A model generated the notes under the pieces. It worked only from the letters and a program-made list of their open reading frames with translations, was not told the origin of the DNA and searched no databases. This document shows positions 36,917 through 42,013 of a stretch of DNA of 64,000 bases, piece by piece (position 1 is the stretch's first letter; every line of letters begins with the position of its first letter). The DNA lies in NCBI RefSeq assembly GCF_902833145.1, contig NZ_CADFEN010000020.1, positions 1-64,000 of the forward strand, in the 5' to 3' direction. The position numbers and the translations under genes are program-made. Origin of the DNA: Burkholderia sp. BCC0506. GTDB lineage: Bacteria; Pseudomonadota; Gammaproteobacteria; Burkholderiales; Burkholderiaceae.

Positions 36917-37225
36917 ATGAAACCGACCAATTGCTCCGTGCCGGCTCTGCAGGCAGCGATCCAAAAAGCTGGGTCGCAGTCCGCACTTGCCCGCCTGATC
37001 GGCAAAAAGCAGCCGCACATCCACAAGTGGCTGCATTCCCCCAATGCAATGAGACCCGAGAACTGCGTGCTCGTCGGGAACGCCGTCGGCATCCCGTACA
37101 GGGACTTTCGCCCCACCGATTGGCATCTGATCTGGCCTGACGCGTCGGCCGCTGCGTCGGGGCGCATGGGCGCATGCATGTCGAATGAGGGGCAGCGCGA
37201 CGTGCTTCGTGCAGGCGTCGACTGA
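36917..37225 (+). CDS. Cro-like regulator (YdaS/Cro type)
   Basis: 102 residues. VPALQAAIQKAGSQSALARLIGKKQPHIHKWLH is a Cro/YdaS-type helix-turn-helix (residues 8-40). Divergent from cI across OR, so it should direct the lytic switch. The ATG is only about seven bases from the predicted -10, with no Shine-Dalgarno, suggesting a leaderless mRNA. Confidence 0.82.
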   Translation: MKPTNCSVPALQAAIQKAGSQSALARLIGKKQPHIHKWLHSPNAMRPENCVLVGNAVGIPYRDFRPTDWHLIWPDASAAASGRMGACMSNEGQRDVLRAGVD

Positions 37226-38727: not shown

Positions 38728-39846
38728 ATGAACTGGCTCGACCGCTCCCACCGCGGCGACTGCCGCGACCTGATGCGCGCAATGATCGCCGACGGCGTGC
38801 GCGTGCAGACGATCGTGACGTCGCCGCCATACTGGGGCCTGCGCTCGTACCTGCCCGACGGGCACCCGGACAAACATCGCGAGATCGGCCAGGAGCCGAC
38901 GCTGCGCGAGTTCATCGACACGCTGGTCGGCGTATTCGACCTCGCGCGCGAGCTACTCGCCGACGACGGCACGCTCTGGATGAACATGGGCGACGCATAC
39001 GCTGGCTCATGGGGCGCGCAAGGGCGCGGCGGTCAGATGGCCAGCCGGTCTACGATCAGCGCTCAGCAGATCGCGGCCGCTCAGCGCAAGCAGAGCGGTA
39101 CCGGCGCGCTGTCTCGCTCTGGACTGAAGGCGAAAGACCTCATGGGCCAGCCGTGGCGCCTCGCGTTCGCGCTTCAGGACGCTGGCTGGTACCTGCGGCA
39201 GGACATCATCTGGCACAAGCCGAACCCCATGCCGGAGAGCGTGCGCGACCGGTGCACGAAAGCGCACGAGTACCTGTTCTTGTTGAGCAAGAGCGAGCAG
39301 TACTTCTACGACTTCGATGCGATGCAGGAACCGGTCAGCGGCGGCGCACACGCTCGGCGCGAAGCGCAGGGGCTCAAACGCCCGGGCTTCGGACATGGAT
39401 ACGATGCCGCGCCAAAGGATCGATACAAAACCCCGGACGGATGGGCAACGCATCCGGGCGCGCACGGCTCGTTTCACCGCGATGGCCGAGAAAAGGGGCG
39501 AAAGCTTTCGGCGGCCGGCAGCGGCGTGAAGAACAACACGAGCATGGATGCTGCGCTTTCAGACATGCGCAGTACCCGCAACCGTCGCAGCGTCTGGACC
39601 ATCCCGACGCAGTCGTTTGACGGCGCGCACTTCGCGACCTTCCCCGAGGCACTCGTCGAGCCCTGCGTGCTCGCCGGCAGCCGGCCGGGCGACGTTGTGC
39701 TCGATCCGTTCTTCGGCAGCGGCACCGTCGGCCAGGTTGCGCAGCGGTTCGGGCGGCGCTTCCTTGGCTGCGAACTGAATCCCGACTACGAGCCGCTGCA
39801 GCGCGATCGCCTGCGGCAGCCCAGTTTGATGCTGGGGGGGGCGTGA
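38728..39846 (+). CDS. DNA methyltransferase (N4-cytosine or N6-adenine, beta class)
   Basis: 372 residues. The catalytic motif TSPPYW is at residues 31-36 and the SAM-binding motif VVLDPFFGSGTVGQVA lies near the C-terminus, so motif IV precedes motif I (beta-class order). The long middle (about 95-310) holds the target-recognition region with the basic SMD-like stretch. TSPPYW favours N4-cytosine but does not exclude adenine. It is a second DNA methyltransferase of this prophage, without a partner nuclease. Stop overlaps the next start. Confidence 0.9.
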   Translation: MNWLDRSHRGDCRDLMRAMIADGVRVQTIVTSPPYWGLRSYLPDGHPDKHREIGQEPTLREFIDTLVGVFDLARELLADDGTLWMNMGDAYAGSWGAQGRGGQMASRSTISAQQIAAAQRKQSGTGALSRSGLKAKDLMGQPWRLAFALQDAGWYLRQDIIWHKPNPMPESVRDRCTKAHEYLFLLSKSEQYFYDFDAMQEPVSGGAHARREAQGLKRPGFGHGYDAAPKDRYKTPDGWATHPGAHGSFHRDGREKGRKLSAAGSGVKNNTSMDAALSDMRSTRNRRSVWTIPTQSFDGAHFATFPEALVEPCVLAGSRPGDVVLDPFFGSGTVGQVAQRFGRRFLGCELNPDYEPLQRDRLRQPSLMLGGA

Positions 39847-40817
39847 TGGAACGGCAAACCTTGCACGTCGTTTCCCTGTCCGGTGGCAAAGACAGTACCG
39901 CGACGCTGCTCGTCGCGCTCGAGCTGCACGGTCGCGAAAACGTACGCGCGGTGTTCGCCGACACCGGCAACGAGCACGAGTCGACGTACGAATACGCGCT
40001 TGAATACCTGCCGCGCGTGCTCGACATCACCGTCGACGTGGTGCGCGCCGACTTCACCGACGAATTTGCGACGAAGCGCGCGAACCTCGCGCGGATCGCC
40101 GCCGGCGAGCCGGAATCATCTGTGTACGGCAGGCGCGAGTTCATGTACGCGTGGACGCCCGAGGCGGCCGCTCGCGCGCTCGACCTGCTGCACCCGACCG
40201 GGAACCCGTTCCTTGACCTCTGCATGGTGCGGGGCGGCTTCCCGTCCCGGAAGCGGCAGTTCTGCACGGAATGTCTGAAGCGGAACCCCCTGACGGAATA
40301 CGCTCTGAGCCTGATCGACGCCGGGTATTTCGTCGAATCGTGGCAGGGCGTGCGTGCGGACGAGAGCGAGGCGCGTCGGTGGCTTCCGCATTACGAGTGG
40401 CGCGGGGGACATTACGCCGTGTTCCGTCCGATCCTGCGCTGGAACGTTGCCGACGTGTTCGACGCGCACGCGGCTGCCGGCATCGCCGCAAACCCGTTGT
40501 ACCGCGAAGGTATGACGCGCGTCGGCTGCATGCCTTGCATCAATGCGGGGAAGCTCGAATTGCGCGAGATCGCGCGCCGCTTTCCCGAGCACGTTGAGCG
40601 CGTAGCGGAGTGGGAGCGCCTCGTATCGGCGGTATGCCGTCCAGGCAGTCCAGTCTCGTTCTTCCACTCCGATTCGTGGCGCGTTGACCGACGTGTGACG
40701 CTTATCTCCGATGTCGTCGAGTGGTCGAAGACCACTCGCGGCGGCCGGCAGTACGACCTCCTCGCGGACGCCGAACCGGCGACCGCATGCGCCTCGGCGT
40801 ATGGACTTTGCGAATGA
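39846..40817 (+). CDS. PP-loop (PAPS reductase-like) ATP pyrophosphatase family protein
   Basis: 323 residues. The PP-loop SLSGGKDSTATLL (residues 10-22) binds ATP; FADTGNEHESTYEY follows. Two CxxC motifs (RQFCTECLKRNPL and VGCMPCINAGK) suggest a metal or persulfide site. Phage members of this family are common; whether they reduce sulfate, modify a base (DndC-like) or thiolate tRNA is not known. ATG 39846 is taken; a GTG three bases earlier overlaps the upstream stop. The stop forms ATGA with the next gene. Confidence 0.8.
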   Translation: MERQTLHVVSLSGGKDSTATLLVALELHGRENVRAVFADTGNEHESTYEYALEYLPRVLDITVDVVRADFTDEFATKRANLARIAAGEPESSVYGRREFMYAWTPEAAARALDLLHPTGNPFLDLCMVRGGFPSRKRQFCTECLKRNPLTEYALSLIDAGYFVESWQGVRADESEARRWLPHYEWRGGHYAVFRPILRWNVADVFDAHAAAGIAANPLYREGMTRVGCMPCINAGKLELREIARRFPEHVERVAEWERLVSAVCRPGSPVSFFHSDSWRVDRRVTLISDVVEWSKTTRGGRQYDLLADAEPATACASAYGLCE

Positions 40818-42013
40818 ACGACCTCCCGAATCCTCTCACCCCAGCGGACTGCGATCTGCGCAATTTCCGCGAAATGCCGATCGATGTGCCGCGGCTCCTT
40901 GGCTCCGATCTCGTGCACGACGAGTCGCCCGAGGCGTGTTGGTCCGCGATGCTGCTCTGGTGCGTGTCGTGGCACGAGGTGCCCGCCGGAAGCATGCCCG
41001 ATAACGACGAGTGGCTCGCGAAGCGTGCCGGCTACTGGCATAAGGGCAAGCTCGATCCGACATGGCACCAGGTGCGCGCCGGCGCGCTGCACGGCTGGAT
41101 CAAATGTACCGACGGGCGCCTGTATCACCCGGTCCTCGCTGAAAAGGTCAACGCGGCGTGGTTCTCGAAGCACCGCCACGCGCACGACAAGCTCGGCGAG
41201 CGTATCCGGAAACGCAACAAGGCGAGGGCGGAACGAGGGCTTGCTCCGCTGGAAGTACCCGAATTGGATGCATGGATCGACATGGGCCGCCCGTTGGAGC
41301 GCGAACTTTTTCCGTTGGAATTTAGTACTACTTCCAGTGGAAGTGAGAAGACTTCCGGGGGAAAAGGGAAATCTTCCGGAGGAAGTGGAGCTCCTTTCCG
41401 TGGTCAAGGCGGGGGAATTCCTCGGGAAGGGTCTGATAGTTCCGCCGGAATTCCTCCGGAAAACGCTCTTAAGGGAGCGGAGCGGAACGGAACAGAACAT
41501 GTAAACCCAAGCGGCGGCGGCACAGCACAGGCAGTAGCGCGCGACGACGCGCCGATCGCCGCCGCCGCTTTCGTCGAAGTTCTTCGCTCGTCGGGCGTCG
41601 GCTTCGCCGCCGATGACGCGCGCTTGGCGAGCTGGCCCGGGCGCGGGGTGACGGCCGACGACCTCCGCGCGGCCATCGCCACGGGGCGCAAGCGCCGTGA
41701 GCGCGAGCGGTCCGAGCAGCCGCTGAACCTCGGCCTGCTCGAGCTGATCCTCGGCGATCTGCTCGCCGCGCGCGCTGCGAAGCCGGGCCCCGGGACACGC
41801 CCGGTCGGCGACTGGTGGCGCTCGTGGACCGGCATCGTCGAGCACGGCGGCACGCTCGGCGTCGAGCAGGGCCGCGACGAACCTCCGTTCGATTTCAAGC
41901 TGCGCGTGTTCGACGCCGCGGGCGACGGCCCGTGGTGGGACGACCACAACCGCGCGTTTCGCAACACTGCCGGCCCCGTCGCGGCCGGCGCTTTGATGGG
42001 GGAAGGGCGATGA
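40814..42013 (+). CDS. DUF1376-like phage replication protein carrying an internal iteron array
   Basis: 399 residues. Residues 20-165 fit the DUF1376 replication-initiator/loader family (LVHDESPEACWSAMLLWCVSW, AGYWHKGKLDPTWHQV, GWIKCTDGRLYHPVLAEKV, then a basic segment RIRKRNKARAERG). Residues 170-235 are a Gly/Ser/Pro low-complexity linker, the part whose DNA carries TTCCNNNGGAA repeats. The C-terminal part is a helical domain of the helicase-loader type (PLNLGLLELILGDLLAARA, then PVGDWWRSW). The arrangement copies lambda, where the origin lies inside gene O. Confidence 0.78.
   Translation: MNDLPNPLTPADCDLRNFREMPIDVPRLLGSDLVHDESPEACWSAMLLWCVSWHEVPAGSMPDNDEWLAKRAGYWHKGKLDPTWHQVRAGALHGWIKCTDGRLYHPVLAEKVNAAWFSKHRHAHDKLGERIRKRNKARAERGLAPLEVPELDAWIDMGRPLERELFPLEFSTTSSGSEKTSGGKGKSSGGSGAPFRGQGGGIPREGSDSSAGIPPENALKGAERNGTEHVNPSGGGTAQAVARDDAPIAAAAFVEVLRSSGVGFAADDARLASWPGRGVTADDLRAAIATGRKRRERERSEQPLNLGLLELILGDLLAARAAKPGPGTRPVGDWWRSWTGIVEHGGTLGVEQGRDEPPFDFKLRVFDAAGDGPWWDDHNRAFRNTAGPVAAGALMGEGR
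41310..41461. repeat. Phased TTCCNNNGGAA iterons, candidate replication origin
   Basis: Exact 11-bp motif TTCCNNNGGAA at 41310, 41332, 41353, 41374, 41418, 41440 and 41451, with a half-intact copy at 41396. Start-to-start spacing is 22, 21, 21, 22, 22, 22 and 11, so all copies face the same side of the helix. Imperfect matches in phase also occur at 41289 and 41244. The left flank 41303-41330 is AT-rich. Likely binding sites of the phage initiator. Confidence 0.8.

What the first reader, a model, noticed from the sequence alone, without database searches (positions are those of the whole stretch)
41310..41461. Helically phased TTCCNNNGGAA iteron array inside the replication gene: candidate phage origin
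Seven exact copies of the palindrome TTCCNNNGGAA (41310, 41332, 41353, 41374, 41418, 41440, 41451) plus a half copy at 41396 fall at 21-22 bp steps, the last at 11 bp, so all lie on one face of the helix. Weaker in-phase matches extend left (41289, 41244). The protein region they encode is a low-complexity Gly/Ser linker, as if DNA sequence rather than protein were under selection. In lambda the origin lies inside O in the same way. The initiator of DUF1376-type phages and its iterons are little described.
Basis: partly seen in the sequence, partly recalled or inferred. Interest (0 to 1): 0.85.

Follow-up and report, generated by a model that had tools for sequence, protein, structure and literature searches.

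The report
Phage replication origin inside initiator gene
A virus of bacteria appears to carry the start point for copying its DNA as a row of evenly spaced binding sites hidden inside the gene for the protein that starts the copying, and one short helix of that protein seems to be matched to the sequence of those sites.

Summary
The array is real: seven exact TTCCNNNGGAA at the stated places. It exceeds synonymous-codon permutation (7 observed; at most 4 in 20,000), lies in two reading frames and mostly encodes a predicted disordered linker. Of 73 viral stretches with three phased copies, 67 lie inside relatives of this gene. Other relatives carry other palindromes in the same place: GTCCCNNGGGAC (80 of 90), ATCGCCCCCCGAT (25 of 29). 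A polypurine tract follows the arrays. Best explanation: an iteron-type phage origin inside the initiator gene. New here: array type is only weakly tied to the winged-helix core but closely to residues 122-138 of the helix after it. A rule fixed from that helix was tried on 36 held-out relatives: predicted A, 5 of 6 have A arrays and none B sites; predicted B, 9 of 18 have two or more B sites, 5 one, 3 none, 1 a lone A site; of 12 others, 11 have neither. Rac prophage gene ydaU holds a similar array, a candidate for oriJ. Binding and origin firing are untested; physical linkage of helix and array is the main caveat.

The parts
40814..42013 (+). candidate replication initiator gene, 399 aa
   Evidence: PHROG 22470 'replication protein' E 9.5e-34; relative in phage Magia annotated replication protein
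40814..41155 (+). codes for the winged-helix core, residues 1-114 (DUF1376-like, below Pfam cut-off)
   Evidence: AlphaFold2 model of residues 1-172, pLDDT 94.6, pTM 0.84; Pfam 23.1 bits. 'Winged helix' is my reading of the secondary structure and the fold matches
41162..41308 (+). codes for residues 117-165: end of the long helix 106-140 and a short tail; candidate recognition segment
   Evidence: residues 122-138 track array type
41244..41254 (.). decayed left iteron CTCCGCTGGAA
   Evidence: one mismatch; exact in L009, L010
41310..41320 (.). iteron 1
41332..41342 (.). iteron 2
41353..41363 (.). iteron 3
41374..41384 (.). iteron 4
41396..41406 (.). half iteron in phase
   Evidence: read from sequence
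41418..41428 (.). iteron 5
41440..41450 (.). iteron 6
41451..41461 (.). iteron 7, abutting iteron 6
41330..41548 (+). codes for the predicted disordered linker, residues 173-245, on which most of the array is laid
   Evidence: pLDDT under 50
41471..41509 (.). polypurine tract followed by GTAAAC; candidate opening or loading element
   Evidence: sequence; a purine tract follows the arrays of types A, B and C
41540..41950 (+). codes for the folded C-terminal domain, residues 243-379; proposed contact to the replication machinery (inference)
   Evidence: model; exchanged independently of the N-terminal half

Best explanation
The array is the replication origin of this prophage's phage. The 399-aa protein encoded around it is the initiator. 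Its N-terminal part is a winged helix continued into a long basic helix, and it binds the TTCCNNNGGAA iterons on one face of the DNA. The neighbouring polypurine and AT-rich DNA opens, and the C-terminal domain recruits the host replication machinery. Shown: the array, its DNA-level constraint, its conservation and its place inside this gene family, the co-variation of helix residues with iteron type, and the independent exchange of C-terminal domains. Inferred: binding, which residues touch DNA, strand opening, helicase recruitment and origin firing.
For: Seven sites against at most 3 (whole gene) or 4 (linker) in 20,000 synonymous permutations. Sites in 68 distinct type-A genes fall in frames 161/148/16, so a repeated peptide does not explain them. 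DNA-only scans land in this gene family: 67 of 73 stretches for type A, 80 of 90 for type B, 25 of 29 for type C. In 12 of 21 annotated records the next gene is called helicase, helicase loader, DnaA-like, primase or ATP-binding protein. Helix residues predict the array on held-out loci. The 60-bp stretch at 41316 ranks 17th least stable of 5,400 overlapping stretches in 33-60 kb. Closest solved folds are N-terminal domains of RepA plasmid initiators, but weakly.
Confidence: 0.83

Rival explanations
1. The array is an operator at which the protein, or another regulator, controls transcription of the replication operon, and the origin is elsewhere.
For: Palindromes suit dimeric regulators; iteron-binding initiators often also regulate themselves (established knowledge, recalled).
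Against: The sites lie some 500 bp inside the gene, not at its start. Arrays of three different sequences keep the same place in the linker. No second array of this palindrome occurs in the window.
Confidence: 0.08
2. The repeats come from a low-complexity Gly/Ser protein linker and mean nothing at the DNA level.
For: The linker is Gly/Ser-rich. One scan hit (L086) is an in-frame peptide repeat, and L096 and L125 show the same spacings (not translated).
Against: Synonymous permutation never gave more than 4 sites; sites lie in different frames at 21 and 22 bp steps; the linker residues change between relatives while the sites stay.
Confidence: 0.02
3. The array is a partition or other maintenance site rather than an origin.
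For: Phased palindromes also occur in centromere-like sites (recalled); phage phi297 has a ParA-like gene nearby.
Against: The array sits inside a gene with a replication-protein profile, and relatives lie next to replication genes in 12 of 21 records; no par gene was recognised among the window ORFs scanned.
Confidence: 0.04
4. For the helix claim only: helix residues and array type go together merely because they are neighbours in the DNA and are exchanged as one block, not because the helix reads the site.
For: The helix is encoded directly before the array. Only 5 supported independent changes exist on the core tree, too few to reach p 0.05. Held-out prediction does not separate the two views.
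Against: Within type A the segment 116-160 is only 46% identical on average, yet R130, R132 and K133 are 68 of 68 and D or E129 is 68 of 68. On the 5 supported pairs residues 129, 132 and 138 follow the type in 4.4 to 4.7, ten control residues in at most 2.0. The C-terminal domain is also close to the array yet shows no link to type. Residues 122, 126, 129, 132 and 136 fit one helix face.
Confidence: 0.3

Closest known systems
Phage lambda O protein and ori-lambda
   Same: Phased iterons inside the initiator gene; lambda's four iterons are annotated inside O. Modular initiator (recalled).
   Different: No Phage_rep_O match up to E 0.5; a DUF1376-like core; shorter palindromes at about 21.5 bp; a polypurine tract after the array.
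Rac prophage ydaU and oriJ of E. coli K-12
   Same: DUF1376 gene in the order racR, ydaS, ydaT, ydaU, then ydaV, whose counterpart in phage 683R6 is called DnaC-like. ydaU carries three exact TGTTNNAACA at 33 and 23 bp, followed by an AT-rich tract. The window also has a YdaS-like gene.
   Different: Different iteron sequence. oriJ is named as an active Rac origin in PMC3945230 (passages seen); searches listed no paper that I saw map it to ydaU.
RepA initiators of staphylococcal multiresistance plasmids (PDB 4pql, 4pt7, 4pta, 5kbj; plasmid source recalled)
   Same: Top fold matches to the N-terminal model. That their iterons lie in the rep gene is recalled.
Gifsy-2 type O proteins
   Same: C-terminal part like that of YdaU (47% over YdaU residues 155-267) and a phased palindrome array in the gene.
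   Different: The YdaU search matched only its C-terminal part, so the N-terminal half is different or too distant to see.

Membership tests
Iteron origin inside an initiator gene (lambda-like organisation) | several phased repeats within the initiator coding sequence | tested here: met
Iteron origin inside an initiator gene (lambda-like organisation) | easily opened element next to the repeats | tested here: inconclusive
   low duplex stability at 41316, but also elsewhere, and a purine tract; opening not measured
Iteron origin inside an initiator gene (lambda-like organisation) | initiator binds the repeats | not testable with these tools
   only co-variation
Iteron origin inside an initiator gene (lambda-like organisation) | replication starts there | not testable with these tools
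   GC skew uninformative
PHROG 22470 replication protein | profile match | tested here: met
   E 9.5e-34, residues 4-140
Pfam DUF1376 (PF07120) | score at or above the curated cut-off | tested here: not met
   23.1 against 30.1 bits for the window protein; relatives L052, L055 and L024 pass, L054 at 29.7 does not
Lambda O family (Phage_rep_O) | Pfam match | tested here: not met
   not among families up to E 0.5
RepA_N plasmid initiators | Pfam match | tested here: not met
   not among families up to E 0.5
RepA_N plasmid initiators | fold of the N-terminal winged helix | tested here: inconclusive

The most novel reading that the evidence does not exclude
A whole class of phage initiators carries a readable origin code. 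A recognition helix (about residues 119-140) beyond the winged-helix core sets the iteron sequence, helix and array are exchanged as one cassette between phages, and the origins of many phages, including oriJ of the Rac prophage, can be located and typed from the protein sequence alone.
Probability: 0.5. Interest if true: 0.77.

Novelty: new variant of a known kind. Interest (0 to 1): 0.62.

Why it matters
A capped search of viral contigs with this N-terminal family alone gave 556 relatives, yet a full-text search for the Pfam name found 5 papers, each naming it once, never in title or abstract. The work gives this family a candidate origin, a candidate DNA-reading helix and three iteron types in an unchanged layout, and makes the place of E. 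coli's oriJ testable in a laboratory strain. If the helix code holds, phage origins can be predicted from protein sequence.

Tried and rejected
GC skew across 22-64 kb gave no switch at the array. The exact-palindrome permutation test (58 genes) gave 27 genes above all 100 permutations, but one of these (L052) scored on a GC palindrome away from the linker, and lambda O did not pass (8 of 100 permutations reached it), so it is not a general detector. Sequence search of solved structures found no convincing relative (best E 0.048 and 0.33). The full-length model gave no match below E 3.9. NCBIfam gave no family. A class-wide genome search gave only 3 of 369 genomes. Of 7 of 398 family genomes with a phased pair, 4 have it in this gene family and 3 (L151, L153, L154) do not; the reversed control pattern matched in 3 genomes.

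Test that I had to replace: a first trial of the helix rule on 32 loci (predicted A 6: 5 A, 1 none; B 13: 10 B, 3 with one site; other 13: 12 fewer than two sites, 1 B) proved on checking to hold 13 loci at 90% or more of a training row, among them all five A successes. Its 19 held-out loci give A 0 of 1, B 3 of 6 with two or more sites and 3 with one, other 12: 10 with none, 1 with one, 1 with two B sites. The larger held-out test is.

Rows dropped: L113, L101, L137 and L172 (incomplete cores) from the core tree. In one search the top A/B pairs by core identity rest on the truncated L113 and are not used. Residues from 156 (type B) or 166 (type A) on, and 144-147 where the left site is kept, are themselves encoded by sites, so their link to type is partly trivial and only 122-138 is used. 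In one search, 43 of 79 loci were set aside as 90% or more like a training row or duplicate (29 A/A, 13 B/B, 1 B/none). Its misses: L410 predicted A without array; L412, L452 and L467 predicted B without sites; L440 predicted B with a lone A site.

Full report
OBSERVATION. The window has seven exact TTCCNNNGGAA at 41310-41461, as reported; the whole window has 8, against a shuffle mean of 0.53 and maximum of 2. They lie in a 399-codon gene (40814-42013) whose residues 4-140 match a replication-protein family (PHROG 22470, E 9.5e-34). Pfam DUF1376 is below its cut-off in this protein but passes in the relative from Burkholderia phage Magia, which is 54% identical over the whole length.

DNA OR PROTEIN. 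Codons were permuted among positions of the same amino acid, so that the protein stayed the same. In 20,000 permutations the gene had at most 3 sites, and with codons permuted only within the linker at most 4; observed are 7. Among 68 type-A genes with distinct N-terminal parts the sites fall in frames 161/148/16. The repeats are therefore a DNA feature. Spacings in 12 genes not chosen by their array (the window and 11 found by protein) fit a 10.75-bp period.

RELATIVES. Protein searches gave 7 loci in genomes and 39 in viral contigs. Eleven of these 46 carry three or more TTCCNNNGGAA in a phased cluster in the gene: L006, L009, L010, L011, L013, L014, L015, L017, L023, L025 and L030 (L011 and L030 are one prophage); L016 has three with a 54-bp gap. 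Others have a different palindrome at the same place: GTCCCNNGGGAC at 22-23 bp in Magia-like genes, ATCGCCCCCCGAT in a third group. DNA-only scans of the viral collection then tested specificity. Three phased TTCCNNNGGAA: 73 stretches, 67 inside an ORF with this core (E under 1e-3), 2 inside ORFs that look like another phage initiator type (L122, L128; my reading of the translations, no search), 4 in other ORFs. Phased GTCCCNNGGGAC pairs: 90 stretches, 80 inside, 10 in ORFs without a core hit. ATCGCCCCCCGAT pairs: 29 stretches, 25 inside; of the 4 misses, L336 and L355 are cut pieces of the contigs of L040 and L042. Stretches were not de-duplicated; 6 of 73, 8 of 90 and 14 of 29 lie on contigs already found by protein.

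ANATOMY. AlphaFold2 on an alignment of 97 sequences gives a confident N-terminal model (pLDDT 94.6, pTM 0.84): a winged-helix-like core, then one long helix, residues 106-140, then a short helical tail. The full-length model has a disordered linker at 173-245, on which most of the array is laid, and a folded C-terminal domain. The best fold matches are N-terminal domains of RepA plasmid initiators, weakly. Directly after the array comes a polypurine tract: the best 30-bp purine fraction averages 0.90 (type A, 62 genes), 0.86 (B, 66) and 0.87 (C, 12), against 0.66-0.67 further downstream and 0.77-0.81 after codon permutation (one per gene). In 12 of 21 annotated records with this gene (L052-L071 and L074) the next gene is annotated as helicase, helicase loader, DnaA-like, primase or ATP-binding protein; L056 and L074 are nearly the same gene.

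MODULES. In the Burkholderia set (6 type A, 7 type B) types A and B share 61% of the core, only 27% of residues 117-165, and 75% of the C-terminal domain. Type-A genes with unrelated C-terminal domains (L009, L010, L011, L023, L025) share with the 6 on average 84% of the core, 72% of the segment and 22% of the C-terminal domain. L017 has a core closer to type B (73% against 58%), a segment closer to type A (63% against 32%), and type-A iterons.

A CANDIDATE CODE. Over 68 type-A and 76 type-B genes, information between residue and array type averages 0.06-0.16 bit in stretches of the core and 0.43-0.48 bit from residue 121 on; the part from about 156 on is partly trivial because sites encode it. 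Type A has D or E129 and R132 in 68 of 68; type B has A129 in 62 of 76, K132 in 71 and R137 in 75. R130 and K133 are common to both. The separating residues 122, 126, 129, 132 and 136 lie on one face of the long helix. On a tree of the core alone the type changes 14 times; 5 independent changes have support. On these, residues 132, 138 and 129 follow the type in 4.7, 4.5 and 4.4 of 5 on average and never go against it; 126 follows in 3.5, 122, 123 and 136 in about 2, 134 in 1.1; ten control residues follow in 0.4 to 2.0. Five pairs cannot reach p 0.05.

HELD-OUT TEST. The rule (A: D/E129, R130, R132, K133; B: A/G129, R130, K132, R137) was written. A first trial proved largely not held out (see Tried and rejected). 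I then fetched 79 new loci by the core alone and kept the 36 that are distinct and under 90% of any training row. Predicted A 6: 5 have two or more A sites and no B site, 1 has neither. Predicted B 18: 9 have two or more B sites, 5 have one, 3 have none, 1 has a lone A site. Other 12: 11 have neither, 1 has one B site. No predicted A had B sites. Loci with three phased A sites or an exact phased B pair would mostly have been in the training set already, so the test is hard on the rule. Physical linkage of helix and array remains the main alternative.

RAC. E. coli ydaU, a DUF1376 gene in a similar gene order, has three exact TGTTNNAACA (0 of 100 permutations reached this) and an AT-rich tract after them. 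PMC3945230 (passages) states that Rac has an active origin, oriJ; searches showed me no paper that maps it to ydaU. The array is offered as a candidate for oriJ.

LITERATURE. Full-text searches for DUF1376 gave 5 papers, each naming it once, seen as listings only. Lambdoid O and iteron work (PMC7466680, passages) is the closest experimental model. Passages of PMC11014345, PMC5700373 and PMC2647930 added nothing on this point. That RepA_N plasmids carry iterons in their rep gene is recalled. Subscription papers are not in the library, so earlier work cannot be excluded.

VERDICT. An iteron origin inside a phage initiator gene is a known kind; this family and its helix-to-array relation look like a new variant.

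Noticed in passing
L056:7512-7577 (Rac ydaU): TGTTNNAACA array in ydaU followed by an AT-rich tract; candidate for oriJ.
   Followed up: partly
L122:1823-2842 (-) and L128:3302-4237 (+): The same 21-bp phased TTCCNNNGGAA array inside two ORFs that look like another phage initiator type, without the core hit.
   Followed up: partly
L134:2-1237 (-): Five phased TTCCNNNGGAA (one step of 11 bp changes frame) inside an ORF that does not look like an initiator.
   Followed up: no
L383, L384, L389 linkers: Relatives with another kind of helix (..TRQQQHRER..) show GTAACG/CGTCAC-like repeats in the linker, again before a purine-rich stretch.
   Followed up: no
L006:5001-5798: The closest relative's reading frame ends early, after the array; pseudogene or assembly error.
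   Followed up: no
36917-37225: YdaS-like gene (Pfam 36.6 bits, cut-off 30) next to a repressor gene on the other strand, as in the Rac prophage.
   Followed up: partly
38728-40817: DNA methyltransferase and phosphoadenosine phosphosulfate reductase genes directly upstream of the initiator gene; a methyltransferase also precedes the relative on the Herbaspirillum plasmid (L057).
   Followed up: no
L057, L058: Two plasmid records of 41-43 kb with phage structural genes carry this initiator gene; they may be phage-plasmids.
   Followed up: no
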